Positions 23,906-35,342 of a stretch of DNA of 64,000 nucleotides are shown here, piece by piece (the first letter of the stretch is position 1; each line of letters begins with the position of its first letter). Source of the stretch: Solirubrobacteraceae bacterium (GTDB taxonomy: Bacteria > Actinomycetota > Thermoleophilia > Solirubrobacterales > Solirubrobacteraceae); the NCBI GenBank assembly GCA_025934395.1, contig JAICYC010000007.1:1-64000 (forward strand), written 5' to 3'. The notes under the pieces are model-generated. The model was not told where the DNA came from. It ran no database searches and was given only the letters and a program-made list of their open reading frames with translations. A program made the translations under genes and the position numbers.

Positions 23906-25458
23906 TCAGACGGTTGAGCGGACCGCGTCGGACGGCGCGGGCGCCCGCTCCTGCTCGGGCAGCGCGTCCGCCGTGGGGAGCGTCAGGCGCATGATCGTGC
24001 CGCCCCCCGGCGCGGGCTCGGCTGTGATGCTCCCTCCCAGCTGGTCTGCCACCTGACGCACGATCGCCAGGCCGAGCCCCGAGCCTGGCCTGCCGCGCGC
24101 CTCGGCCCCGCGGTAGAAGCGATCGAACACGTGCGGGAGGTCCTGCTCGGCGATCCCCCCGCCATGGTCGCGCACGGTCAGCTCGCCCCCGTGCAGCTCC
24201 ACCCGCACCGCTGCGCCCGGAGGGCTGTGCTTGACCGCGTTGTCGAGCAGGTTCGCCACCGCCCGCTCCAGGCGTCCCGGTACGCACGCGATCATCGTCG
24301 GCGCCAGGTCGCGCTCGATCGGCGTGCTCGGCGAATGGCGACGCGTGCGCTCGAGCACGTCTTCCACGAGCAGGTCCAGCCGCACCTCCTCGGAGGCAGC
24401 GCGCGGCTCATCGCCGCGCGCGAGCTCGATCAGGTCGTTCATCAGCATCGTGAGCTCCTCGATCTGCTGCACCACCTCGGCGAACATCTGCTGCTGGTCG
24501 GAGCTGCTCATCTGCGTCCCCTGCGCCTGCAGGATCTCGATGTTGGTGCGCACGCTCGTGATCGGCGTTCGCAGCTCGTGCGACGCGTCCGCCACGAGCT
24601 GGCGCTGGGCGTGCACAGAGGCATCGAGCGCGTCCATCGATCGGCCGAGCGCGTCGAGCATCGCGTTGAAGTTCGCCGCCAGCTGCCCCACCTCGTCGCT
24701 GCCCGGCTGCTCGATGCGCTGCGAGAGGTCGCGCGTGAGCGCCACGTGCTCGGTCGTCCTCGACAGGGCGCGCAGCGGCTTGACCGCCGCCCCCGCCACG
24801 ATCCTGCCCAGCAGCGCTGCCAGGGCGATCCCGCCCACGTCGAGCAGCACGAGGATCAGGCGCAGCCGCCGCAGCAGGCTGTCCACTTCGGTGAGCGGCT
24901 GGGCGAGCTGCAGGACGCGACCGCTGCCGAACGGCTCGGAGAGCACGCGCAGGTGCAGGCCCCGCACGCGCGCGTCGGTGAAGTGCGAGGGCCCGCCGTG
25001 CAGCGCGAGCTTCCTCGTCGCGCCGTCCACAGGGAGCAGGAAGTGGGAGTTGGAGCGCAGCAGCACCTTGCCGCCCGCGTACACCTGCTGGTAGCCGCGC
25101 ACCTGGTCCGGGCCCGGCGCGAACCGGCCGAAGAAGTTCGTTCGCCCCGTCGCGAGGCGGCGCAGCTGGCGCGCGGTCAGCGAGGACGGCTGGGCCGCTT
25201 TCCCGCCCGCGCCCGAGCCCGCGATGTGGGGCGCCTTCGCTCCCGGCACCCCCAGCGCAGCGTCCACCACCGCGGTCCCGTTCGGCACCGATTCGAGCAG
25301 GTGCAGCAGCCGGTTGGCGCCGTGCGCGCGCTCCCGGAGCTGCGAGTCCACCTGGCTGTGGAGCTGGTTGGAGGTGAGCAGGTAGACGAGAATCGACGCG
25401 AGCACGATCGCGATCGCCACGGCCGCCGCTGCCACGATCGTCAGGCGTCGCCGGAAGC

Positions 25459-25462
<4 letters not shown>
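23906..25462 (-). CDS. Sensor histidine kinase (MprB/HK1-like)
   Basis: Membrane sensor kinase of 518 residues. Two transmembrane helices (about 7-29 and 201-219) flank an extracytoplasmic sensor region. A HAMP segment follows, then the dimerisation domain with phosphoacceptor His295 in [13 protein letters not shown]. The ATPase domain shows N box [11 protein letters not shown]1 RDHGGGI, F box VFDRFYRG and G2 GSGLGLAIV. The start overlaps the stop of the response regulator gene (ATGA on the minus strand), so the pair forms one operon. The layout is like the MprAB envelope-stress system, but the signal is unknown. Confidence 0.95.
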
Positions 25463-26151
<689 letters not shown>

Positions 26152-26222: not shown

Positions 26223-26236
26223 GAGAACCGGTTCTC
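26223..26236. promoter_or_regulatory. Perfect 14-bp palindrome, candidate operator
   Basis: GAGAACCGGTTCTC is fully symmetric, and a further half site GAGAACC is at 26204-26210. The position upstream of a response regulator gene suggests autoregulation. A second imperfect repeat, GATTCCTAAGAATC, is at 26286-26299. Confidence 0.45.
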
Positions 26237-26620
26237 AGGCTAGCGTGATGGCGTTTCGCGATACCCGGATAAGGAAAGCCGAAGAGATTCCTAAGAATCG
26301 GGGCTGACGACGTCGGAAGGTGGCTGGCGCAGGCGCCCCGCGGCGCGCAACCGCCCCCGGCCCCGGCGCAGTCGCGCTGTCCCCTGCTGCAGTCGCCCCC
26401 GCGGGGCACCACCGTGGCGCGCAGTCGCCCCGCCGCCTCCACGGTCGCGCGCGCGACCGGGCGGGCGAGCGCGGGTCTCGCAAGCGTCCCGTACGCTCGC
26501 CCGCCCTCGGTCTCCTCCCTCCTGCTCCTCCTCTTCTTCTCCTCCCGATCGCGGCCGTTCGCCATCTGTCCCGGCGGTCGGTGTGGAAGCCAGCAACGCC
26601 AGCGGCCACAGGAGGACGTC
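26237..26620. other. Non-coding region between divergent operons
   Basis: About 380 nt without a supported gene. It holds an inverted repeat (GGGCGAGCG at 26463-26471 with CGCTCGCCC at 26494-26502) and a pyrimidine tract at 26511-26547. GGAGG at 26611-26615 serves the next gene. An in-frame extension of the next gene reaches back to 26414 but has no protein-like composition. Confidence 0.5.
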
Positions 26621-27556
26621 ATGCCGAGCAGCATCAACAGCGCCATCACGCCCGCGCGCAGCGAGCACGCGCCGCGTCGCCAGAGGACCCGCCCAGCCGA
26701 TCGCACGCGCGTGCTACTGCGCTTCGCGGACCAGGGCGGCGGCGCCCGCGAGGTGGTCGCACAGCGCCTGGCCTCAGGCGGGATGCTCGTGATCGATCGC
26801 GCCGAGCCCGGTGGAGGCGACGAGCGCCTGCTCGCCCACCTCGCCCCCGATGAGCCGTTCGAGAACGCCGTGCTGGCCGCGCGCTGCTACGCGCAGGACG
26901 GCCCCCGCGCGGGCCGCCCGCGGCGCGTCCTGCAAGCCGACAGGGACGCGCGTCCCGAAGGCGAGTGCGAGCCGCAGCCCTTTCTGCCGGGGGCATCGGT
27001 GATCCGCTGCCGGGGCGCCGCGCGCGCATTTCGCCTCGGCCTCCTCGACGGCGCGATGTCGATCCCCGAGCTCCGCTGGACCGCGGTCGATCGGGGTGGC
27101 CTCGCAGCGGAGGCGACCGTGGTGAGCCTGCGCGAGGTGATCGCCTCCGTGGAGGCCTACGAGCCCGCGCTGCGCATCACCGCCGGCGCGCTCGCGGGTG
27201 CCCGCGCGACCGCAGCCGGCGCGGTCGGCGGCGATGCGCACTCCTGCTCGGTGCTGCGCCAGGAGCACGCGCGCGTGTGCTCCAGCCCGATCGTGCTCAA
27301 CCGCGGCCTGCGCGAGGCGGTGCTCGCCGCGCTCGCACGCGGTGACACGAGCATGAGCGAGATCGCGATCCGCTGCGGGCGGGTCAAGCGCGATCGCCGC
27401 GGCAACGTCAGCGGGGAGACGAGCTGGCTGGCGCGCCGCATCGGCCTGCTCGCGGAGGGCGGGGCCGCGCGCCCGACGCCCTGGATCCACACCGACGTGC
27501 TCGCGCTGATCGCGCGTCGCGGCCTGGCGCTCAGCCCCCGCGAGGTAGAGCTCTGA
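26621..27556 (+). CDS. Unknown protein with a possible C-terminal DNA-binding domain
   Basis: A 311-residue protein that I do not recognise. The N-terminus is Arg-rich and probably disordered; residues 28-120 form a mixed alpha/beta region ([22 protein letters not shown]). The last 85 residues are helical with a HTH-like part ([22 protein letters not shown]) and a second unit ([20 protein letters not shown]). A regulator or DNA-binding role is only an inference. ATG with GGAGG 5 nt upstream. The stop lies next to the response-regulator-like gene, and both run toward the TraG-like ATPase gene. Confidence 0.6.
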
Positions 27557-27567
27557 GCGCCGCGCGA

Positions 27568-28257
27568 GTGCTGGTGGTGCTCGAACGCCACGGCCCTCGC
27601 ACCGCGTTGCGCACCGCAGAGCTGCTCGCGCTCCTGGCCGCAGACGGATACGACGTCGCGGTCGCGCACGGCCTCGTCCAGGCGCGCGCGATCGCGAGGC
27701 GACGCCCCCCGCACGCGCTCCTGCTGGGCCATCTCGGCGGCCCGGCCGTCTCGCTGGAGATGCTCGCGGAGGTGCCCACGATCAACGGCCGCGTGCGTCC
27801 CCCCTCGGCGATCGTGCTCGGGTGCGTCCGTGAGGAGGGCGAGCTCGTGCGCGCGCTCGACGCCGGCGCCGACGACGCGCTCGTGCGCGACTCCTCATAC
27901 ACAGAGCTGAGCGCCCGGCTGCGAGCGCGCCTGCGCGAGCTCGCCGCCGCGCATGCACACGCCACACGGCTCGAGGTCGGCGCGCTCGCGATCGACAGGG
28001 GCGCGCGCACGGTGATGCTCGGCGGCGAGCCCGTCGCTCTGCGGAACCTCGAGTTCGAGCTGCTCGCACATCTCGCCCGCGCCCCGCACCGGGTGTTCGG
28101 CAAACACGAGCTGCTCGCCGCGGTGTGGGGCTACCGAAGCACCGCGCGGACGCGAACCGTCGACAGCCACGCGCTGCGCCTCCGCCGCGAGCTGCGCCGG
28201 CACCACACAGACCCCTGGGTGGTCACCGTGTGGGGGGTCGGCTACCGGCTGATCTGA
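27568..28257 (+). CDS. Atypical response-regulator-like protein without a phosphoacceptor
   Basis: About 229 residues. The N-terminal half has the secondary-structure pattern of a receiver domain, but the phosphoacceptor position reads Gly54 in HALLLGHLGGP. The N-terminal acidic pair is missing (VLVVLERHG), and the switch lysine is replaced in DDALVRDSS. The C-terminal OmpR-type winged helix is intact (LRNLEFELLAHLARAPHRVF, TVWGVGYRLI). It therefore likely binds DNA without phosphorylation control. GTG 27568 is the first standard start; a CTG at 27553, overlapping the previous stop as CTGA, would add five residues. Confidence 0.8.
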   Translation: MLVVLERHGPRTALRTAELLALLAADGYDVAVAHGLVQARAIARRRPPHALLLGHLGGPAVSLEMLAEVPTINGRVRPPSAIVLGCVREEGELVRALDAGADDALVRDSSYTELSARLRARLRELAAAHAHATRLEVGALAIDRGARTVMLGGEPVALRNLEFELLAHLARAPHRVFGKHELLAAVWGYRSTARTRTVDSHALRLRRELRRHHTDPWVVTVWGVGYRLI

Positions 28258-28418
28258 GCTGCGAGCCGCGCCGCGCTCGCGGCGGCCGCGCACATCTCCA
28301 CGACGGCGCCGCGACGCGTCCGTCGCAACGCGCCGCGCGGGCCAGTCCGCCGGCGTGACCGAAGGCGCGGGCGTGCGAGCCGGGCGACCGGCGCCGCCCG
28401 CGCGCATCCACAGCAACC

Positions 28419-28435
28419 AGCCGGCGTCGCCGGCT
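28419..28435 (+). promoter_or_regulatory. Small hairpin before the TraG-like gene
   Basis: AGCCGGC-GTC-GCCGGCT sits just upstream of the AAGGAGGG Shine-Dalgarno sequence at 28441-28448. The rest of 28258-28451 is very GC-rich and shows no gene. Confidence 0.35.
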
Positions 28436-28451
28436 CACACAAGGAGGGACG

Positions 28452-30050
28452 ATGCACCCCACGCATCTCGCCGCCGCGATCGGCGGCAACCCCGGCCTGC
28501 ATGTCAGGCAGGCCTTCACATGGCTCATCACCGAGGCGCTCCACCTCGTGCTCGGCCTCGCAGCAGGGGCGCTCCTCGCGCGCTCGCTGCGGGCTCGCGG
28601 GCTGCACTGGAGCTGGGCGCTCGCAGCGCTCCCCGCGATTCCGCCCGCCTCGGCGCTCGGCGCCCCCGAGCTGACGGTCGCGCTCGCCGCGGCGGTCGCG
28701 GCGCGGACCGGAAGGCGCCTGCACCGAGAGGACCTGATGGACGGCGGGGACCTCGCGCGCGCTGCGCATGCACGACGGAGCCCCGGTGACGCGCTGCGCG
28801 TCGCGCTGGGCGACACGCTCGGTCGCAGCGGAGCGCCCGCCGGCGCGTCGCGTGAGGCGATGACGCTCGGTCGCGACGATCGCGGGCGTGCGGTGCGGAT
28901 CGCCGTCGGCGGCGGGCGCCACACGCTCGTGGTCGGCGCCACCGGCTCGGGCAAGACGGTCACGCAGGCCTCGATCGCGGTCCACGCGATCGAGCGGGGC
29001 GCCGCTGCGATCGCGATCGACCCGAAGGGCGATCGCGACCTCCGGGAGGCGCTCGCCTCGGCTGCCGCGAGCGCCGGTCGCCGGTTCCTGTCCTGGTCGC
29101 CCCAGGGCGGCGCCGTGTACAACCCATATGAGAGGGGCGGCAGCAGCGAGATCGCCGACCGGCTGCTCGCGGCGGAGCCGTTCAGCGAGCCGCACTACCT
29201 GCGCCAGGCGCAGCGCTACATCGCGCACGTGGTGAGCGCCCTTCGCGCCGCGGGCGAGGACGTGTGCCTGCGCACGATCGCCGAGCATCTCGAACCCGTT
29301 CGTCTGGAGCTGCTCGCGCGCGAGCTGGGGGAGGGCGGACGCGCCACGCACGACTACCTGGACGCGCTCACCCCCCGCCAGCGTGCGGACCTGTCGGGGG
29401 TGCGGGACCGCCTCGCGCTCGTCGCGGAGTCCGACGTCGGGCGCTGGCTGGACCCGCGCAACGACGCCGCGCCGCGGTTCGAGCTCGAGGCGGCCGTGCG
29501 CGCCGGCGCGACCGTGTGCTTCACGCTCGAAGCCGACCGCCGCCCGCTCCTCAGCGAGATGCTCGGCGCCGCGATCGTCCAGGACCTGCTCGCCACCGTG
29601 GCGTCGCTGCAGTCGCAGCCCGTCCCGGCGCTCGTGATGGTGGACGAGTTCTCCGCGATCGCCGCCCGCCACGTGGTGCGGCTGTTCGCCCGGGCGCGCT
29701 CGGCCGGCTTCAGCCTGCTGCTGGGCACCCAGGAGCTCGCCGACCTGCGGTTGCGCGACGGCGAGCAGGTGCTCGACCAGGTGCTCGGGAACCTGTCCGT
29801 GCTGATCGCCCACCGCCAGGTGGTGCCGGGGTCCGCGGAGCTGATCTCCGCGATCGCCGGCAGCCGCGGCACATGGCGGGTGAGCAGGCACAGCGACGGC
29901 CGGCACACGCGCACCCGTGCGCAGGAGCGGGTGCTCGTGCCCGAGCAGGTGGCGCGGCTCGATACGGGGCGTGCAGCGGTGCTGCGCCTGCACGGGGGCG
30001 GTGCCGAGGTCGTGCGGGTCGACCCCGCGGGCGTGGAGGTGTCCAGATGA
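28452..30050 (+). CDS. VirD4/TraG-like DNA-translocating ATPase
   Basis: A 532-residue P-loop ATPase of the type IV coupling protein/HerA-FtsK group. One or two hydrophobic segments (about residues 22-45 and 53-85) precede the motor domain. Walker A is GATGSGKT (162-169), Walker B VMVDEF (395-400), and the sensor-like GTQELADL is near 425. FNPY-like VYNPYERGG near 222 matches TraG-type proteins. Such ATPases deliver DNA to a secretion channel. No relaxase or type IV channel gene is in the window, so the role may be chromosomal or regulatory. The stop overlaps the next start (ATGA). Confidence 0.85.
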   Translation: MHPTHLAAAIGGNPGLHVRQAFTWLITEALHLVLGLAAGALLARSLRARGLHWSWALAALPAIPPASALGAPELTVALAAAVAARTGRRLHREDLMDGGDLARAAHARRSPGDALRVALGDTLGRSGAPAGASREAMTLGRDDRGRAVRIAVGGGRHTLVVGATGSGKTVTQASIAVHAIERGAAAIAIDPKGDRDLREALASAAASAGRRFLSWSPQGGAVYNPYERGGSSEIADRLLAAEPFSEPHYLRQAQRYIAHVVSALRAAGEDVCLRTIAEHLEPVRLELLARELGEGGRATHDYLDALTPRQRADLSGVRDRLALVAESDVGRWLDPRNDAAPRFELEAAVRAGATVCFTLEADRRPLLSEMLGAAIVQDLLATVASLQSQPVPALVMVDEFSAIAARHVVRLFARARSAGFSLLLGTQELADLRLRDGEQVLDQVLGNLSVLIAHRQVVPGSAELISAIAGSRGTWRVSRHSDGRHTRTRAQERVLVPEQVARLDTGRAAVLRLHGGGAEVVRVDPAGVEVSR

Positions 30051-30730
30051 GCCGCACGATCCGAGCCCAGCGGCGCGCGGCAACGCTCGGTTGGATCGCC
30101 CGCACCGGTCCCGTCACGGCCGGCGCGCTGGCGGTGCGCGAAGGTTGCGGTCTTGCCTCCGCACGGTCGCACCTCGCCGCGCTCGCGCGCGCGGGGCTCG
30201 TCCGGCGGAGCGCGCCGCTGCGCGACGCCCCGCCGCTGTACACGATCTCCCCGCACGGGCTGCGCACGGCCGGCACCCGGGGCGTCGCGCCCGCCCCGGT
30301 GAGCGCCGCCGCCGCCGCGCACGCGATCGCATGCGCCGAGGTCGCCGTCCGCCTCCAAGCGCGCTGGCCCGAGCTGGAGGTGATCGGAGAGCACGCGATC
30401 CGCGCGCGCGAACGCGACGGCGTACCTTCGTTGAGCTGCCTGGCCGGCACGCTCACCGCCGACGGGCGCCACGTGACGCACCGGGCCGACCTCGCGGTGA
30501 TCGGCGAGCCGCCGCTAGTCGTCGAGGTCGAGCTGACCGCGAAGGCGCCCGCGCGCCTGGCCCGGATCTGCCGGGCGTGGGCGCGCTGCAGCACGGTCTC
30601 CGGCGTGCTCTACGTGGTCTCCGCCTCCGCGCAGCAGCCGGTCGCGCGCGCCGTCGCCCGCGAGCACGCCGGATCGCGAATCGCGATCGTGCGGCTGGCC
30701 GCGCTCGGCGTCGCCGAGCGACCCCACTGA
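30047..30730 (+). CDS. Winged-helix protein of replication-relaxation type
   Basis: A 227-residue protein with an N-terminal winged helix (TLGWIARTGPVTAGALAVREG, then ARSHLAALARAGLVRR) and a C-terminal alpha/beta part. The C-terminal part has a nuclease-like core: THRADLAVIGEPPLVVEVELTAKAPARLARICRAW, with D, E-x-E and K spaced as in PD-(D/E)xK folds. The architecture fits the actinobacterial replication-relaxation family, often found next to TraG-like ATPases on mobile elements. Whether it cuts DNA is unknown. It is translationally coupled to the ATPase gene, so the two products probably work together. Confidence 0.7.
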   Translation: MSRTIRAQRRAATLGWIARTGPVTAGALAVREGCGLASARSHLAALARAGLVRRSAPLRDAPPLYTISPHGLRTAGTRGVAPAPVSAAAAAHAIACAEVAVRLQARWPELEVIGEHAIRARERDGVPSLSCLAGTLTADGRHVTHRADLAVIGEPPLVVEVELTAKAPARLARICRAWARCSTVSGVLYVVSASAQQPVARAVAREHAGSRIAIVRLAALGVAERPH

Positions 30731-30753
30731 GGGGAACCGTCCCAAGAGGCGCC

Positions 30754-30759
30754 TAGCGT
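30754..30759 (+). promoter_or_regulatory. Possible -10 element of ssb
   Basis: TAGCGT lies about 38 nt before the ssb ATG, leaving a short leader that contains GTGGAGG (30786-30792). The ssb gene could thus be expressed apart from the ATPase operon. Confidence 0.3.
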
Positions 30760-30797
30760 CCGCGGCGGGGGACCAACAACGAGCAGTGGAGGCATGC

Positions 30798-31214
30798 ATG
30801 GCATACGACATGGTCAACAGAGTGGTTGTGGTGGGTCGGCTCACCCGCGATCCCGAGCTCCGCGCGCTGTCGTCGGGCTCGTCGGTGTGCTCGCTGCGGC
30901 TCGCCTGCAACGGGTCGCGGCGGACGCCCGACGGCGCCTATGAGGAGCGGCCCAACTACTTCGACGTGAGCGTGTTCGGCCCGCAGGGCGAGAACGTCGA
31001 CCGCCACATGGAGCGCGGCAGCCTCGTCGCGGTCGACGGCCGGCTCGAATGGCGCGAGTGGGACACCGAGCACGGTCGCCGCCAGGCGGTGAGCATCGTC
31101 GCCGACAGGGTCCAGTTCCTCGACCGTCCGGGCGGCCGCGGGGAGGAGGGCGAGGGCGGGGAGGACCCCGAGCTCGCAGGCGTGGGCGCCGACGACGGCG
31201 CGGTCGCATTCTGA
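30798..31214 (+). CDS. ssb: Single-stranded DNA-binding protein
   Basis: OB-fold SSB of about 138 residues (MVNRVVVVGRLTRDPELRAL; NYFDVSVFGPQGENVDRHMERGSLVAVDGRLEWREW). The acidic tail ends DDGAVAF rather than the usual DDxPF, so the contact with partner proteins may differ. It is not flanked by rpsF and rpsR, as the housekeeping ssb normally is. It follows the TraG-like operon by 67 nt, which suggests a specialised paralogue. The start is ATG 30798, 5 nt after GTGGAGG. Confidence 0.9.
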   Translation: MAYDMVNRVVVVGRLTRDPELRALSSGSSVCSLRLACNGSRRTPDGAYEERPNYFDVSVFGPQGENVDRHMERGSLVAVDGRLEWREWDTEHGRRQAVSIVADRVQFLDRPGGRGEEGEGGEDPELAGVGADDGAVAF

Positions 31215-31230
31215 GGGAGCACCGCAGCGC

Positions 31231-31327
31231 GCTGCCCGGGGCGGCGGCGCGCTGCGGGGCCGCCCCCGGGGCGGCGGCGCGCTGCGGGGCTGCGGCGCCC
31301 GCGGGTCCGGCGGCGCCCGCGGTTCCG
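31231..31327. repeat. GC-rich short tandem repeats
   Basis: Two copies of a 30-nt unit lie at 31231-31260 and 31261-31290, identical over the last 23 or so bases. Two copies of an 18-nt unit (GCGGCGCCCGCGGGTCCG type) follow at about 31292-31327. They fill the gap between ssb and the dehydratase pair. Confidence 0.6.
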
Positions 31328-31345
31328 GCAGCGCCCTGCGCCGCG

Positions 31346-31351
31346 TAAACT
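31346..31351 (+). promoter_or_regulatory. -10 element of the dehydratase operon
   Basis: TAAACT is followed by a leader of about 23 nt with AAGGAG (31368-31373), 8 nt before the ATG. Confidence 0.45.
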
Positions 31352-31381: not shown

Positions 31382-31822
31382 ATGCCAGTGAACACGCAAG
31401 CGGTCGGCAAGACCTACGACCCCGTCAACTACGCGGTGGGCCGCGAGAAGATCCGCGAGTACGCGCGTGCGGTGGGGGAGACGAACCCCGTGCACCTCGA
31501 GCTCGATGCAGCGCGCGCGGCGGGGTACGCGGACCTCGTGGCACCGCCGATGTTCGCGGTCGTGTACTCGGCCCCGGCGGTGGGCCCGCCGATCTTCGAT
31601 CCCGAGATCGAGCTCAACTTCGCGATGATGGTCCATGGGGGCCAGGAGTTCGTGTGGGGCGAGCCGGTCGTCGCGGGCGACGAGATCGACACCGTGGCGA
31701 GCGTCAAGGACATCCACGAAGCGGACGGTCGGGGCTACTACGTGTTCGAGTCGATCTCGACCAACCAGCGCGGCGAGCAGGTCTGCCGCGGGACGTGGAC
31801 GAACATCGTGCGAGGAGTGTGA
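31382..31822 (+). CDS. MaoC-like dehydratase, HadA-type subunit
   Basis: A 146-residue hot-dog-fold protein resembling the HadA subunit of the (3R)-hydroxyacyl-ACP dehydratase of actinobacterial type II fatty acid synthesis. Family features are REKIREYARAVGETNPVHLELDAARAAGYADLVAPPMFAVVY and the WGEPVVAGDEI strand. It lacks the full catalytic Asp/His hydratase motif, which the next gene carries, in keeping with HadA acting as the substrate-binding partner. ATG start with AAGGAG. It is 4 nt from the next gene. Confidence 0.88.
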   Translation: MPVNTQAVGKTYDPVNYAVGREKIREYARAVGETNPVHLELDAARAAGYADLVAPPMFAVVYSAPAVGPPIFDPEIELNFAMMVHGGQEFVWGEPVVAGDEIDTVASVKDIHEADGRGYYVFESISTNQRGEQVCRGTWTNIVRGV

Positions 31823-31826
31823 GCCG

Positions 31827-32216
31827 GTGAGCGAGCTTCAGGCAGGAGCCCAGATCCCGGAGCTGCGGGTGACGCCCGACAAGTTCCTCACCGTCCGCTA
31901 TGCGGGCGCCTCGGGTGACTTCAACCCGATCCACATCGACGAGGAGTTCGCCAAAGCCGTCGGTCTGCCCGGGCGGATCCTTCACGGCCTGTGGACGATG
32001 GCGCAGGTGGCGCGGGCGCAGACCGATGCCGCGGGCGGCCCTCAGCACCTCAAGCGCCTGTCGGTGCAGTTCCGCGGCATGGGGATGCCCGAGCAGGAGG
32101 TGCTCGTCACGGGAACGGTGCGCGAGGTCGACGGGTCGAAGGCGATCGTCGACACCGTCGCCGAGCAGGGCGGCAGCCAGATCATCCGCAACGCGGAGGC
32201 CGAGCTCAGCATCTGA
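31827..32216 (+). CDS. MaoC-like dehydratase, HadB-type catalytic subunit
   Basis: A 129-residue hot-dog-fold hydratase/dehydratase with the catalytic motif YAGASGDFNPIHIDEEFAKA, in which the Asp and His are the expected catalytic dyad, and GRILHGLWTMAQVAR after it. With the preceding HadA-like subunit it probably forms the dehydratase of the fatty acid elongation cycle. GTG start 4 nt after the preceding stop. Confidence 0.88.
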   Translation: MSELQAGAQIPELRVTPDKFLTVRYAGASGDFNPIHIDEEFAKAVGLPGRILHGLWTMAQVARAQTDAAGGPQHLKRLSVQFRGMGMPEQEVLVTGTVREVDGSKAIVDTVAEQGGSQIIRNAEAELSI

Positions 32217-32244
32217 GCCGGTCCGCCGGCGCCAGGGCGCGGCC

Positions 32245-32250
32245 TACAAT
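32245..32250 (+). promoter_or_regulatory. -10 element of hrcA
   Basis: TACAAT, close to the consensus, is 7 nt before the hrcA ATG. No CIRCE inverted repeat was found around it. Confidence 0.6.
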
Positions 32251-32257
32251 CAGACGC

Positions 32258-33286
32258 ATGCTCACCGCACGCCAGGAGCAGATCCTGAGCAAGGTGGTCG
32301 ACGACTACCTGCGCTCCGGAGCGCCGGTGCCCTCGCGCACGATCGCCGCAGACCCCGCGCTCGAGTGCAGCCCCTCCACCGTGCGCAACGAACTCGCGGT
32401 GCTGGAGGAGATGGGCCTGCTCACGCACCCGCACGTCTCAGCGGGGCGCGTGCCCACCGACGCGGGGCAGCGCTACGTGGTGGATCGCATGCTCAGCTCC
32501 GGCGGGATCGTGCACGCGCCGCGGCGACGCCTGGAGCTCTCGCTGATCCGCCGCGAGGTCGACCAGGTGATGCGCGCGACGACCGAGACGCTCTCACAGG
32601 TGACCAACCTGCTCGCGGTGGTGTCCGCGCCGTCGATCAAGGCGGCGACCGTTCGCCACGTCGAGGTGCTCGCGCTGCAGCCGCAGGTCGTGATGGTCGT
32701 GATCATCACGTCGACCGGCGGCGTGTCGAAGATGCTCGCCACGTTCGATCACAGCGTCGACCAGGGGCTGCTCACGTGGGCGGGCGAGTACCTCAACGAC
32801 CGGCTCGTGGGCCGCGAGCTGGGCGCGCGCATGCTCCAGCAGCGGCTGTTCGACCCGAGCCTCTCGCCGGTGGAGCTCGCGTTCCTCTCGCGCCTGTCGC
32901 CAGCGTTCGGCGGGCTCGCTCAGGACGCCGACGAAGAGCTGTACGTGGACGGCACGGCGCGCCTGTTCGAGACGGCGCGGATCGACGACGTCGCCGAGAT
33001 GAACGAGCTGATCGAGCTGCTCGAGCGCCGCGTGACCCTCCTGCAGATCCTGCGCTCGGCGCTCGGAGAGGACGGGGTGTACGTCCGGATCGGCAGCGAG
33101 AACGAGCTGCCGGCGATGCAGTCGCTCGCCGTCGTGGCGAGCGGCTACGGGATCGCCCAGCGCAAGCTCGGCACCGTGTCGCTGATCGGCCCCGTGCGAA
33201 TGGACTACGCGGCCGCGATCGCCACCGTGCGGGACGCTGCACAGGAGCTCTCGGCGTTCGTCCAGGACGCCTACGCCGACAATTGA
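32258..33286 (+). CDS. hrcA: Heat-inducible transcription repressor HrcA
   Basis: Represses chaperone genes by binding CIRCE elements and needs GroEL for activity. The 342-residue protein starts with the winged helix (MLTARQEQILSKVVDDYLRSGAPVPSRTI, SPSTVRNELAVLEEMGLLTHPHVSAGRVPTD) and has the GAF-like C-terminal domain typical of HrcA (VYVRIGSENELPAMQSLAVV, GPVRMDYAAAIATV). It begins an hrcA-dnaJ-prmA unit without grpE or dnaK. Confidence 0.96.
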   Translation: MLTARQEQILSKVVDDYLRSGAPVPSRTIAADPALECSPSTVRNELAVLEEMGLLTHPHVSAGRVPTDAGQRYVVDRMLSSGGIVHAPRRRLELSLIRREVDQVMRATTETLSQVTNLLAVVSAPSIKAATVRHVEVLALQPQVVMVVIITSTGGVSKMLATFDHSVDQGLLTWAGEYLNDRLVGRELGARMLQQRLFDPSLSPVELAFLSRLSPAFGGLAQDADEELYVDGTARLFETARIDDVAEMNELIELLERRVTLLQILRSALGEDGVYVRIGSENELPAMQSLAVVASGYGIAQRKLGTVSLIGPVRMDYAAAIATVRDAAQELSAFVQDAYADN

Positions 33287-33306
33287 TGAGCGGCCCCGTC
33301 AACTGA

Positions 33307-34419
33307 ATGCCGCGGGATCCCTACGAGGTGCTCGGCGTGGGCCGTGAGGCCGGCGAGCAGGAGATCAAGAAGGCGTTCCGCGTGCTCGCGCGCGAGCTCC
33401 ACCCCGATGTGAACGCGCACGACCCGCAGGCCGAGGAGAAGTTCAAGGAGGCTGCGGAGGCGTACGAGATCCTCTCCGACGCGGACCGCCGCGCCACATA
33501 CGACCGCTACGGGCACGAGGGCCTGCGCTCCGGCGGCTACGCGCCCAACTTCGACGCGTTCTCCTCGATCGGCGACCTGTTCAACGCGTTCTTCGGCGGT
33601 GGTGGGATGCGCACCGGCCCGGCCCAGGGCGGCGATGTGGCGGTGCGGGTCGACATCGACCTGCTCGACGCCGCCCACGGCGTCACCAGCGAGGTGGCCT
33701 TCGAGGCGATCGACCGCTGCGAGCGCTGCCACGGCAACGGAGCGGAGCCCGGCACGCCGATCGAGACGTGCGAGCGCTGCGGCGGCGCGGGGCAGCTCCA
33801 GGCGGTCACGCGCACCCCGTTCGGGCAGATGATGCGCACGATGGTGTGCGACACGTGCGAAGGCGACGGCCGCGTCCCGCGCGAGCCGTGCAGCGAGTGC
33901 CACGGCCGGGGTCGGATCAGGCGCGCGCGCAAGATCGAGGTGGAGATCCCTGCGGGGATCGCCGACGGACAGCGCGTGCGGCTCTCGGGCGACGGCCATG
34001 TTGGCGACGCGGGCGCGCCCGCGGGCGACCTGTACGTGCTCGTGCGCGTGCGCGAGGACCCGCGCTTCGTGCGCGAGGGCGACGACCTGATCACCGCGCT
34101 CGACGTGCCCGCGCCCCTCGCGGCGCTCGGCGCCACGCTCGAGGTCCCCACGCTCGAGGGGAGCACCGAGGTGGAGCTGCCCGCGGGCAGCCAGCCCGGC
34201 GACGTCCTCACCCTGCGGCGCGAGGGGATGCCCTCGCTGCGCCACGGCCGCACGGGTGACCTGAAGGTCGTCGTCAACGTGATCGTGCCGCGCCGGCTCA
34301 CGCCCGAGCAGCGCGACCTGGCCGAACGCCTCAACGAGACCCTCACGGAGGAGAACCTGCGCTCGCACGAGTCGGTGTTCGCCAAGCTGCGCCGGGCGCT
34401 CGGCAGCCAGGCGGCGTGA
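33307..34419 (+). CDS. dnaJ: Chaperone DnaJ (type I)
   Basis: Hsp40 co-chaperone of DnaK, 370 residues. The J domain carries HPD in ARELHPDVNAHD, followed by a short Gly/Phe region (FNAFFGGGG) and four zinc-binding repeats, CERCHGNG, CERCGGAG, CDTCEGDG and CSECHGRG. The C-terminal substrate-binding domains are complete. The start ATG lies 20 nt after the hrcA stop. The stop overlaps prmA (GTGA). The hrcA-dnaJ order suggests this is the stress-controlled DnaJ copy. Confidence 0.96.
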   Translation: MPRDPYEVLGVGREAGEQEIKKAFRVLARELHPDVNAHDPQAEEKFKEAAEAYEILSDADRRATYDRYGHEGLRSGGYAPNFDAFSSIGDLFNAFFGGGGMRTGPAQGGDVAVRVDIDLLDAAHGVTSEVAFEAIDRCERCHGNGAEPGTPIETCERCGGAGQLQAVTRTPFGQMMRTMVCDTCEGDGRVPREPCSECHGRGRIRRARKIEVEIPAGIADGQRVRLSGDGHVGDAGAPAGDLYVLVRVREDPRFVREGDDLITALDVPAPLAALGATLEVPTLEGSTEVELPAGSQPGDVLTLRREGMPSLRHGRTGDLKVVVNVIVPRRLTPEQRDLAERLNETLTEENLRSHESVFAKLRRALGSQAA

Positions 34420-35342
34420 TCCGGCTCGCGGTGCGCGTCAGCAGCGAGCACGCGGAGCTCGTGCTGGCGGAGCTGCTCACGCTGTGCCCAGCCGGCGTCG
34501 AGGAGGCCGAGCTCGCCCCCGGCGTGATCGAGTACGCCGTCTACGGTGCGCCCGGCGAGCTTCCGAGCCTGCCGGACCTGCACGCGGTCGCAGGCGACGC
34601 GCTCGTCGAGGTGCGCACCACCGAGGTCGCCGAGGACTGGTCGGAGCGCTGGAAGCAGTTCCACCGGCCCGTCCTGATCCCGGCGCCCGCGGGCTCCACC
34701 GGCGTCCCCGCCGTGTACGTGCGGCCGCCGTGGGAGCCGCCGCGGGGCGCCGCGGACGGCATCGAGATCGAGATCGACCCCGGGCAGGCCTTCGGCACCG
34801 GCGGCCACGCCACCACGCGGCTGTGCCTGGAGCTGCTGCTCGCCCACGCCGGCCTGCGCGGGGCGCGCGGCGCGGTGCTCGACGTCGGCACGGGCTCCGG
34901 AGTGCTCGCGATCGCCGCCTCCAGGCTCGGCTACGCCCCCGTGCTCGCGCTCGACAACGAGCCCGAGAGCGTCAACGCCGCTTGCGAGAACGCCCGCGTC
35001 AACGGCGCCACCGTCGAGGTGCGCCGGCTCGACCTGCGCAGCGATCCGCTGCGTTGGGTCGGCGAGGAGCCGACCGCGCCCACGCTGGTGCTCGCCAACC
35101 TGCTCGCACCGTTGCTCGAGCTGCTCGCATCCACGCTCGCCGACGGGCCGGCGCTTCCCGGCGATCTGGTTGCGGGCGGGCTGCTCGACCACGAGGCGCC
35201 CGCCGTGGCGCGCGCCTTCGCCCAGGCCGCCGGGATGGAAGTCGTGCGCAGTCGCGAGGAGGGGGGGTGGGCGGCGCTGTGGCTCGCCCGTCCTGGTCAG
35301 CCGTCCGCGAGCTCCGTCGCCGCGCACACGTTGGCGCGGTAG
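34416..35342 (+). CDS. prmA: Ribosomal protein L11 methyltransferase
   Basis: S-adenosylmethionine-dependent methyltransferase that trimethylates ribosomal protein L11. Of 308 residues, the N-terminal substrate domain ends near WSERWKQFHRP. Then come the family hallmark GQAFGTGGHATTRLCLELL and the SAM loop LDVGTGSGVLAIAA. hrcA-dnaJ-prmA is a widespread operon. The final 15 codons overlap the 3' end of the convergent amidohydrolase gene by 46 nt. Confidence 0.93.
   Translation: MIRLAVRVSSEHAELVLAELLTLCPAGVEEAELAPGVIEYAVYGAPGELPSLPDLHAVAGDALVEVRTTEVAEDWSERWKQFHRPVLIPAPAGSTGVPAVYVRPPWEPPRGAADGIEIEIDPGQAFGTGGHATTRLCLELLLAHAGLRGARGAVLDVGTGSGVLAIAASRLGYAPVLALDNEPESVNAACENARVNGATVEVRRLDLRSDPLRWVGEEPTAPTLVLANLLAPLLELLASTLADGPALPGDLVAGGLLDHEAPAVARAFAQAAGMEVVRSREEGGWAALWLARPGQPSASSVAAHTLAR

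What the first reader, a model, noticed from the sequence alone, without database searches (positions are those of the whole stretch)
26621..31214. TraG-like ATPase, nuclease-like winged-helix protein, SSB and a phosphorylation-blind regulator in one module
Five consecutive plus-strand genes combine an unknown protein with HTH-like end, a receiver-less OmpR regulator, a VirD4/TraG-type motor with intact Walker motifs, a translationally coupled winged-helix/PD-(D/E)xK-like protein and an extra SSB. These are the parts of a machine that moves or processes single-stranded DNA. No relaxase, type IV channel, integrase or att site is present and the flanks are housekeeping genes. It could be a domesticated conjugation remnant or a dedicated chromosomal DNA-transfer, uptake or defence system. 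The assignment of parts is from motifs; the joint function is inference.
Basis: partly seen in the sequence, partly recalled or inferred. Interest (0 to 1): 0.72.

Follow-up and report, generated by a model that had tools for sequence, protein, structure and literature searches.

The report
Chromosome-fixed conjugation machine, split in parts
The five genes are the DNA-handling half of a bacterial mating machine whose channel genes sit elsewhere in the same chromosome; both halves have been inherited in fixed places through a genus of soil bacteria instead of moving as a mobile element, which suggests the bacteria kept it to move their own DNA.

Summary
The module is real and conserved: unkA, a degenerate response regulator, a TraG/VirD4 ATPase, a PF13814 protein and a second SSB. 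TraG sits just upstream of MaoC-MaoC-hrcA-dnaJ-prmA in 18 of 24 sampled genus members. (1) The 'winged-helix/nuclease' protein belongs to the MOBC relaxase family. It keeps the catalytic D/E/E/K/R set of pTEF1 TraX, but Tyr181 is Leu. (2) The channel exists: a TcpF/VirB4-type T4SS operon lies at a second fixed locus (beside lon) in G000 and most of the genus (VirB4 in 19 of 24). (3) A 1250-aa ATPase-MOBC fusion usually lies just upstream of unkA (on another contig in G000) and directly follows a T4SS operon in G085 and G087. VirB4, the fusion protein and unkA track housekeeping genes (Mantel r 0.81-0.83). A helically phased GCAGTYGC array upstream of unkA (26368-26428) goes with the canonical TraG-MOBC pair, so it is a candidate oriT/binding site. 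ComEC was not found. Best reading: a vertically inherited, split conjugation-type ssDNA export system acting on the chromosome; that function is inferred. A second genus has fixed a TraG-MOBC pair without detectable VirB4, so a channel-independent role remains a serious rival.

The parts
26223..26236 (.). perfect palindrome GAGAACCGGTTCTC; possible relative of the TCCGAGACCCC(C)TTAAGGGG(G)TCTCGGA palindrome found 126-240 bp upstream of unkA in most genus members
   Evidence: pattern scan. In the window it lies further upstream than in relatives, so the equivalence is uncertain
26368..26428 (+). array of three GCAGTYGC direct repeats (26368-26375, 26389-26396, 26421-26428), spacings 21 and 32 bp; candidate oriT-type binding site or operator
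   Evidence: 15-fold enriched upstream of unkA, present with the canonical TraG-MOBC pair and missing without it
26621..27556 (+). unkA, 311 aa, conserved unknown protein, highly conserved HTH-like C-terminus; found only in Solirubrobacterales loci, also in recombinase/ParB/ArdC elements
   Evidence: no family; AF2 pLDDT 83; no PDB match
27568..28257 (+). RRx, OmpR/PhoB-type regulator with degenerate receiver (phospho-Asp replaced by Gly); optional, no homologue in several genomes with the rest of the module
28452..30050 (+). TraG/VirD4-type membrane ATPase (T4CP family), 532 aa
   Evidence: (TrwB the best solved relative)
30047..30730 (+). MOBC-family (PF13814, Replic_Relax) protein, 227 aa: N-terminal MarR-like winged helix, C-terminal D148/E160/E162/K166/R170 motif, Tyr181 equivalent = Leu171
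30798..31214 (+). second SSB with a conserved variant C-terminal tail in place of DDDIPF (alternative start 30786)
31382..35342 (+). constant right flank MaoC-MaoC-hrcA-dnaJ-prmA (anchor for synteny, not part of the machine)

Best explanation
The module is the DNA-processing half of a conjugation-type type IV secretion machine that has become a fixed, vertically inherited chromosomal trait. SHOWN by sequence: a TraG/VirD4 ATPase, a MOBC-family relaxase-like protein and an extra SSB at the hrcA locus; a large membrane ATPase fused to a second MOBC domain (c6), normally next door and in G000 on contig C79; a TcpF/VirB4-type channel operon (TcpC-like, small membrane protein, TcpE-like, VirB4, VirB6-like, lytic transglycosylase) at a second fixed locus beside lon; a helically phased repeat array plus a palindrome upstream of unkA. 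INFERRED: the MOBC proteins recognise the repeat array, a strand is nicked and unwound there or nearby, c6 and/or TraG pump it to the channel, and SSB2 coats it. RRx and unkA regulate the locus. Because the array lies in the chromosome without an integrase or att site, what would be exported is chromosomal DNA (as in Hfr strains or the Neisseria gonococcal genetic island), not a discrete mobile element.
For: Fixed location in 18 of 24 genus members, with unkA-(RRx)-TraG-MOBC-SSB or a divergent version beside MaoC-hrcA-dnaJ. PF13814 is treated as MOBC (Coluzzi 2017 Table 1; PLSDB types pTEF1, which carries one, as MOBC), and MOBC is PD-(D/E)XK-related. D/E/E/K/R and Tyr203 kept versus pTEF1 TraX. 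Channel operon syntenic in the genus, with TcpF E=1.7e-55 and a transglycosylase. c6 directly follows the VirB1 gene of a T4SS operon in G085 and G087. Mantel r versus HrcA/DnaJ/PrmA: VirB4 0.83, c6 0.81, unkA 0.81, near the locus A housekeeping genes Lon 0.81 and FAD reductase 0.82. dN/dS 0.10-0.22 for module genes in the closest pair, PrmA 0.29. c6 and TraG present or absent together in the 11 best genomes (8 both, 3 neither; Fisher p=0.006). Array enrichment and its absence in the two loci with a TraG-MOBC deletion. No ComEC in 24 genomes, controls positive.
Against: No transfer data exist. TraG and the MOBC protein follow the species tree less well (r 0.48 and 0.35; 0.59 and 0.58 without three divergent genomes), so some replacement or accelerated change occurred. 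Tyr181, proposed catalytic in TraX, is Leu in all 21 aligned proteins. Two loci have lost the TraG-MOBC pair, and G019/G022 lack TraG, c6 and the genus-type VirB4, so the system is dispensable. G024 has c6 and TraG but no VirB4 detected at 93% completeness. A second genus (g39) has fixed a TraG-MOBC pair with no VirB4 detected. TcpC, TcpE and VirB6 assignments score below curated cut-offs. Nearly all genomes are draft MAGs, and the permutation tests are not phylogenetically corrected.
Confidence: 0.5

Rival explanations
1. Immobilised remnant of an integrative conjugative element: an ICE inserted near hrcA in the ancestor, lost its integrase, was broken into pieces, and the pieces are drifting away.
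For: Homologous sets lie in real elements with integrase, ArdC, ParB and SSB. TraG-MOBC deleted in L069 and L074; TraG, c6 and genus-type VirB4 absent in G019 and G022; RRx and the MOBC protein patchy.
Against: Reading frames intact in nearly all genomes, dN/dS about 0.2, vertical signal for VirB4, c6 and unkA, both loci retained at fixed places over deep within-genus divergence, cis array kept together with its presumed readers.
Confidence: 0.2
2. The TraG-MOBC pair is a stand-alone chromosomal DNA translocase-nuclease (repair, segregation, plasmid or phage restriction) that does not need the channel.
For: Genus g39 fixes a MOBC-TraG pair at another constant place (between a lipid-kinase-like gene and relA-recJ-secDF) in the loci read, with no VirB4 detected in that genus. 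TraG has a PADLOC mad8 hit (E=3e-18). Tyr181 lost, consistent with a changed nuclease activity.
Against: In g1, g7 and part of g2 the pair co-occurs with c6 and a conserved channel operon; it has a hydrophobic N-terminal segment in most g1 genomes; order-level homologues lie beside channel genes. A mad8 hit is unsurprising for a VirD4-type ATPase and the MOBC protein has no PADLOC hit. The g39 pair is a separate clade.
Confidence: 0.2
3. The T4SS has been co-opted to secrete proteins or for cell contact, as proposed for Patescibacteria, and the DNA-handling genes are incidental neighbours.
For: A lineage-wide chromosomal monoderm-type T4SS mostly without relaxase is known in Patescibacteria (PMC12102498). 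The channel is at a separate locus.
Against: Here MOBC domains, a T4CP, a variant SSB and a cis repeat array are conserved together; c6 is adjacent to the channel genes in G085 and G087. No effector cluster was noted.
Confidence: 0.1
4. DNA uptake (competence) machinery.
For: An extra SSB is typical of competence systems; T4SS-derived uptake exists (Helicobacter ComB, general knowledge).
Against: No ComEC in any of 24 genus genomes while the same search finds it in 10 of 14 control genomes; MOBC, T4CP and VirB4 point to export.
Confidence: 0.03

Closest known systems
MOBC relaxase systems: pAD1/pTEF1 TraX with its VirD4-type T4CP; streptococcal IMEs with Rel_PF13814/MobC and VirD4
   Same: PF13814 domain, MarR-like N-terminus, D...E-x-E-x3-K-x3-R spacing, neighbouring VirD4-type T4CP and SSB genes; oriT with short direct repeats (five direct repeats: PMC12857230; its inverted repeat is recalled)
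   Different: No plasmid, integrase or att site; Tyr181 replaced by Leu; a second MOBC domain fused to an ATPase; channel at another chromosomal locus; vertical inheritance
TcpF/TcpC/TcpE-type (MPF_FA-like) conjugation machines of monoderms, e.g. pCW3 and Tn916 relatives
   Same: VirB4/TcpF-like ATPase, TcpC-like, TcpE-like and VirB6-like membrane proteins, lytic transglycosylase, in one operon
   Different: Fixed next to lon across a genus, no relaxase or integrase in the operon, coupling genes at the hrcA locus
Gonococcal genetic island T4SS and Hfr-type chromosomal transfer
   Same: Chromosomal machine with relaxase and T4CP that would export chromosomal ssDNA
   Different: GGI is F-like with a MOBH relaxase and is a single island; here the parts are split and MOBC-type, and export is not shown
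Patescibacteria chromosomal T4SS (PMC12102498)
   Same: Lineage-wide chromosomal monoderm-type T4SS with T4CP encoded apart from virB4
   Different: Patescibacteria clusters mostly lack a relaxase; here MOBC-family domains are conserved with the T4CP

Membership tests
MOBC relaxases | PF13814 (Replic_Relax) match above the curated cut-off | tested here: met
   26.8 bits vs 25.3; c6 of G000 27.2 bits; pTEF1 TraX-like 28.5 bits
MOBC relaxases | N-terminal MarR-like winged helix followed by a PD-(D/E)XK nuclease fold | tested here: inconclusive
   AF2 model pLDDT 94; N-terminal half matches MarR-family structures (Foldseek probability up to 1.00, no E-value below 0.001); no solved structure matched the C-terminal half
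MOBC relaxases | catalytic D152, E170, E172, K176, R180 of TraX | tested here: met
   D148, E160, E162, K166 invariant and R170 nearly invariant in 21 proteins, same E-x-E-x3-K-x3-R spacing as pTEF1 TraX
MOBC relaxases | Tyr181 of TraX (proposed catalytic; recalled from Francia 2013, not read here) | tested here: not met
   Leu171 in all 21 proteins; the c6 MOBC domain keeps a Tyr at the matching place
MOBC relaxases | nicks a cognate oriT (inverted repeat plus direct repeats) | not testable with these tools
   A candidate repeat array and palindrome exist; no nicking data
VirD4/TraG coupling proteins (T4CP) | Walker A and B, TraG-D_C/TrwB domain, N-terminal membrane segment | tested here: met
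   hydrophobic N-terminal segment found in 19 of 22 aligned proteins by a simple hydropathy scan
VirD4/TraG coupling proteins (T4CP) | couples a relaxase to a VirB4-type channel | not testable with these tools
   Co-occurrence only
TcpF/VirB4-type conjugative T4SS | VirB4/TcpF ATPase with companion TcpC, TcpE, VirB6 and cell-wall hydrolase | tested here: inconclusive
   Hydrolase passes its cut-off; VirB4 strong by E-value (1.7e-55) but below the equivalog cut-off; TcpC 19 bits (cut-off 27), TcpE 15.9 (29.9), CD3337/EF1877 44.9 (120); all syntenic and homologous to ICE genes
Integrative conjugative element | integrase and att site, variable chromosomal location | tested here: not met
   No integrase among gene calls at the locus; same flanks in the genus. 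No dedicated integrase HMM or att search was run
Competence (ComEC) DNA uptake | ComEC channel | tested here: not met
   0 of 24 genus genomes, 10 of 14 controls positive

The most novel reading that the evidence does not exclude
A whole genus of Solirubrobacteraceae-like soil actinobacteria, lacking ComEC, carries a vertically inherited chromosomal gene-exchange apparatus: a split MOBC/VirD4/TcpF machine that starts from one chromosomal repeat array and exports the cell's own genome to neighbours, i.e. conjugation turned from a mobile element's tool into a host trait.
Probability: 0.3. Interest if true: 0.87.

Novelty: new variant of a known kind. Interest (0 to 1): 0.7.

Why it matters
Conjugation genes are normally read as selfish cargo. 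A machine whose parts sit at separate constant chromosomal places, largely follow the host tree, evolve under purifying selection and lack an integrase would be a case of conjugation kept by the host. A 2011 survey found few T4SS or coupling proteins in actinobacteria (PMC3158045). The genus also appears to lack ComEC. The array upstream of unkA and the MOBC proteins make the question directly testable: does the protein bind and nick there, and does chromosomal DNA leave the cell?

Tried and rejected
Receiver-less regulator: rejected, the receiver is degenerate but present. RRx as reader of the repeat array: disfavoured, the array is present in six genomes without detectable RRx and absent in two (G016, G029) with it. 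Dispersed array (parS/clt-like): rejected, outside the locus the pair pattern occurs at control frequency. Canonical relaxase: PF03432 only in 2 of 24 genus genomes and not in G000; TrwC-type relaxase was not searched. Defence system: only VirD4/HerA-type cross-hits in PADLOC. Phage origin: no TraG match in phage records. Plasmid origin: TraG matches only distant Spiroplasma, Carboxydocella, Sporomusa and Bdellovibrio plasmids, the MOBC protein none. unkA function: no family, no PDB fold. c6 as a competence or FtsK protein: rejected, it follows a T4SS operon in G085/G087. Horizontal replacement of TraG in G001/G006/G018: the tree puts them inside the clade on a long branch, so fast divergence is equally possible. 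Searches failed from a wrong end coordinate, from a region one base too long, from a short term.
Full report
WHAT IS THERE. The window lies in a Solirubrobacterales MAG (G000; named close relatives are Solirubrobacteraceae/Solirubrobacterales MAGs). Five + strand genes stand where reported: unkA 26621-27556, RRx 27568-28257, TraG 28452-30050, a PF13814 protein 30047-30730 overlapping the TraG stop, and SSB2 30798-31214. Family scans give nothing for unkA; Trans_reg_C for RRx; TraG-D_C, TrwB_AAD_bind and T4SS-DNA_transf for TraG; Replic_Relax for the fourth; SSB for the fifth. SSB2 is one of two SSB genes in the genome; the other is in the rpsF-ssb-rpsR-rplI context. In genus relatives SSB2 ends in a conserved variant tail (around E/D-LVGVGAG...F) instead of DDDIPF.

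CORRECTIONS. RRx has a receiver domain below the Pfam cut-off, with Gly at the phospho-acceptor position in all relatives that have that region. It is optional: several genomes with unkA, TraG and the PF13814 protein have no detectable RRx. The PF13814 protein is in the family that the literature treats as MOBC relaxase (Coluzzi et al. 2017, PMC5357655). MOBC is described as related to PD-(D/E)XK nucleases, with TraX of pAD1 as prototype (PMC12857230). I took the replication-relaxation protein of pTEF1, a plasmid typed MOBC. Its residues 28, 152, 170, 172, 176, 180, 181 and 203 are E, D, E, E, K, R, Y, Y, matching the TraX residues I recall from Francia et al. 2013 (not read here). In the profile alignment the window protein keeps D148, E160, E162, K166, R170 and Y189, with Leu171 at the Tyr181 position. 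D148, E160, E162, K166, Leu171 and Y189 are invariant in 21 relatives. The comparison is of modest strength (hhalign E 0.05) and rests on motif spacing plus PF13814 passing its cut-off in both. AlphaFold2 gives a confident model (pLDDT 94); only the N-terminal half matches solved structures, MarR-type.

FIXED LOCUS B. tblastn of window proteins against relatives shows unkA-(RRx)-TraG-MOBC-SSB immediately before MaoC-MaoC-hrcA-dnaJ-prmA in the genus and in two neighbouring genera (G029, G024). TraG is at this place in 18 of 24 genus genomes; G021 and G001 are on contigs too short to see the flank; G009 has the flank inverted but close. In G006, G016 and G018 TraG is strongly divergent and the MOBC gene missing or displaced. 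L069 and L074 (genus-type loci) have unkA, RRx and SSB with TraG and MOBC missing between them.

THE MISSED PARTNER c6. A protein of about 1250 aa, with TM segment, P-loop ATPase and C-terminal PF13814 domain, lies just upstream of unkA in most genus members beside a TetR/MarR-type regulator. In G000 it is on contig C79 (61% identical to G002). Its MOBC domain keeps D, E, D, K, R and the Tyr in nearly all rows. In G085 and G087 it is the gene following VirB8-like, small protein, (TcpE-like), VirB4, VirB6 and VirB1 genes. So c6 reads as the coupling-protein/relaxase fusion of this T4SS type.

THE CHANNEL, LOCUS A. A VirB4 query from an ICE of the order found one strong copy in most genus members. 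Reading the surroundings shows a syntenic operon (TcpC-like, small membrane protein, TcpE-like, VirB4, VirB6-like, lytic transglycosylase) between an FAD-dependent reductase and a YihY-lon pair. In G000 it is on C148. With the G000 VirB4 as query, 61-71% identity copies occur in 18 genus members besides G000, and in G029 and G140; more distant copies (35-46%) are scattered and look like ICEs. VirB4 is TcpF-like (E 1.7e-55) and the hydrolase is clear, but TcpC, TcpE and VirB6 calls are below curated cut-offs.

VERTICAL OR MOBILE. Distance-matrix correlation with HrcA/DnaJ/PrmA: VirB4 0.83, c6 0.81, unkA 0.81, SSB 0.69, TraG 0.48, MOBC 0.35; controls MaoC 0.93, FAD reductase 0.82, Lon 0.81. Without the three divergent genomes TraG is 0.59, MOBC 0.58, SSB 0.81 and VirB4 0.63. 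These are permutation tests on related genomes and small sets. dN/dS in the closest pair is 0.22 (unkA), 0.18 (TraG), 0.19 (MOBC), 0.10 (SSB), 0.17 (c6), against 0.08-0.29 for neighbours; wider pairs give higher ratios (up to 0.76 for MOBC between G000 and G023), where dS is poorly estimated. In the 11 best genus genomes TraG and c6 are present or absent together (8/3, p=0.006); TraG with VirB4 p=0.055. G019 and G022 lack all three (the VirB4 hits in G019 are of the ICE type). Relaxase PF03432 is found in only 2 of 24 genomes; ComEC in none.

RELATED MOBILE ELEMENTS. unkA relatives occur in elements with ParB, ArdC, SSB and a tyrosine or serine recombinase (L071, L072, L076, L082, L090, not every part in each). 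G041 has a full ICE with integrase, TraG, MOBC, SSB, VirB4, VirB6, TcpC-like, TcpE-like and ArdC; G050 has most of these. The module therefore probably comes from conjugative elements.

A CIS SITE. Upstream of unkA an array of GCAGTYGC repeats is 15-fold enriched (44 in 16.7 kb against 63 in 368 kb). The motif was found post hoc from shared k-mers, but clusters of three or more within 250 bp occur almost only there. Same-strand spacings are mostly 20-21, 32, 41-42 and 53-54 bp, multiples of a helical turn. Genome-wide, repeat pairs away from the locus occur at the frequency of the reversed-pattern control, and the 32-bp spacing is found only at the locus. All 15 genus members with canonical TraG and a readable upstream region have the motif, 14 with two or more copies; the five loci without a canonical pair (G006, G016, G018, L069, L074) have none or one. 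A palindrome TCCGAGACCCC(C)TTAAGGGG(G)TCTCGGA lies 126-240 bp upstream of unkA in most genomes, including some without the array. An inverted repeat plus short direct repeats is how I recall the pAD1 oriT; the review confirms five direct repeats as the TraX bind site. Operator function is an equal possibility, for the palindrome above all.

COUNTER-EVIDENCE. Genus g39 of the same family has a MOBC-TraG pair fixed at another place (before relA-recJ-secDF in the loci read: L134, L135, L138, L139, and before the same relA-like gene in L137) with no VirB4 detected in that genus. That pair is a separate clade in the TraG tree. So a channel-free role for such pairs is possible. Function in the window's genus is inference from parts, conservation and co-occurrence.

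VERDICT. The best reading is a split, host-inherited conjugation-type DNA export system (0.5). Its closest kin are MOBC/VirD4/TcpF conjugation machines, of which this is a new variant.

Noticed in passing
L134, L135, L137, L138, L139 (genus g39): A MOBC-TraG pair in the opposite gene order is fixed between a diacylglycerol-kinase-like gene and relA-recJ-secDF, with no VirB4 detected in the genus: a second, apparently independent chromosomal fixation.
   Followed up: partly
window 26223-26236; upstream of unkA in relatives: Long palindrome TCCGAGACCCC(C)TTAAGGGG(G)TCTCGGA upstream of unkA in most genus members, present also in genomes without the repeat array.
   Followed up: partly
L072, L076, L090 (G009), L082, L071: Solirubrobacterales elements with unkA, ParB, ArdC, SSB and a recombinase in varying sets; G009 holds several. 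They look like an undescribed integrative element family.
   Followed up: partly
L069, L074: The TraG-MOBC pair is missing between RRx and SSB, together with the repeat array.
   Followed up: yes
SSB2, window 31150-31214 and relatives: Conserved alternative SSB C-terminal tail (around LVGVGAG...F) instead of DDDIPF, suggesting a dedicated partner.
   Followed up: no
24 genus genomes: ComEC (PF03772) not found in any genome of the genus although the control search works.
   Followed up: no
window 31225-31350: GC-rich short repeats between SSB2 and MaoC.
   Followed up: no
window 23906-26151: A histidine kinase/response regulator pair occupies the place upstream of unkA where most relatives have c6.
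   Followed up: partly
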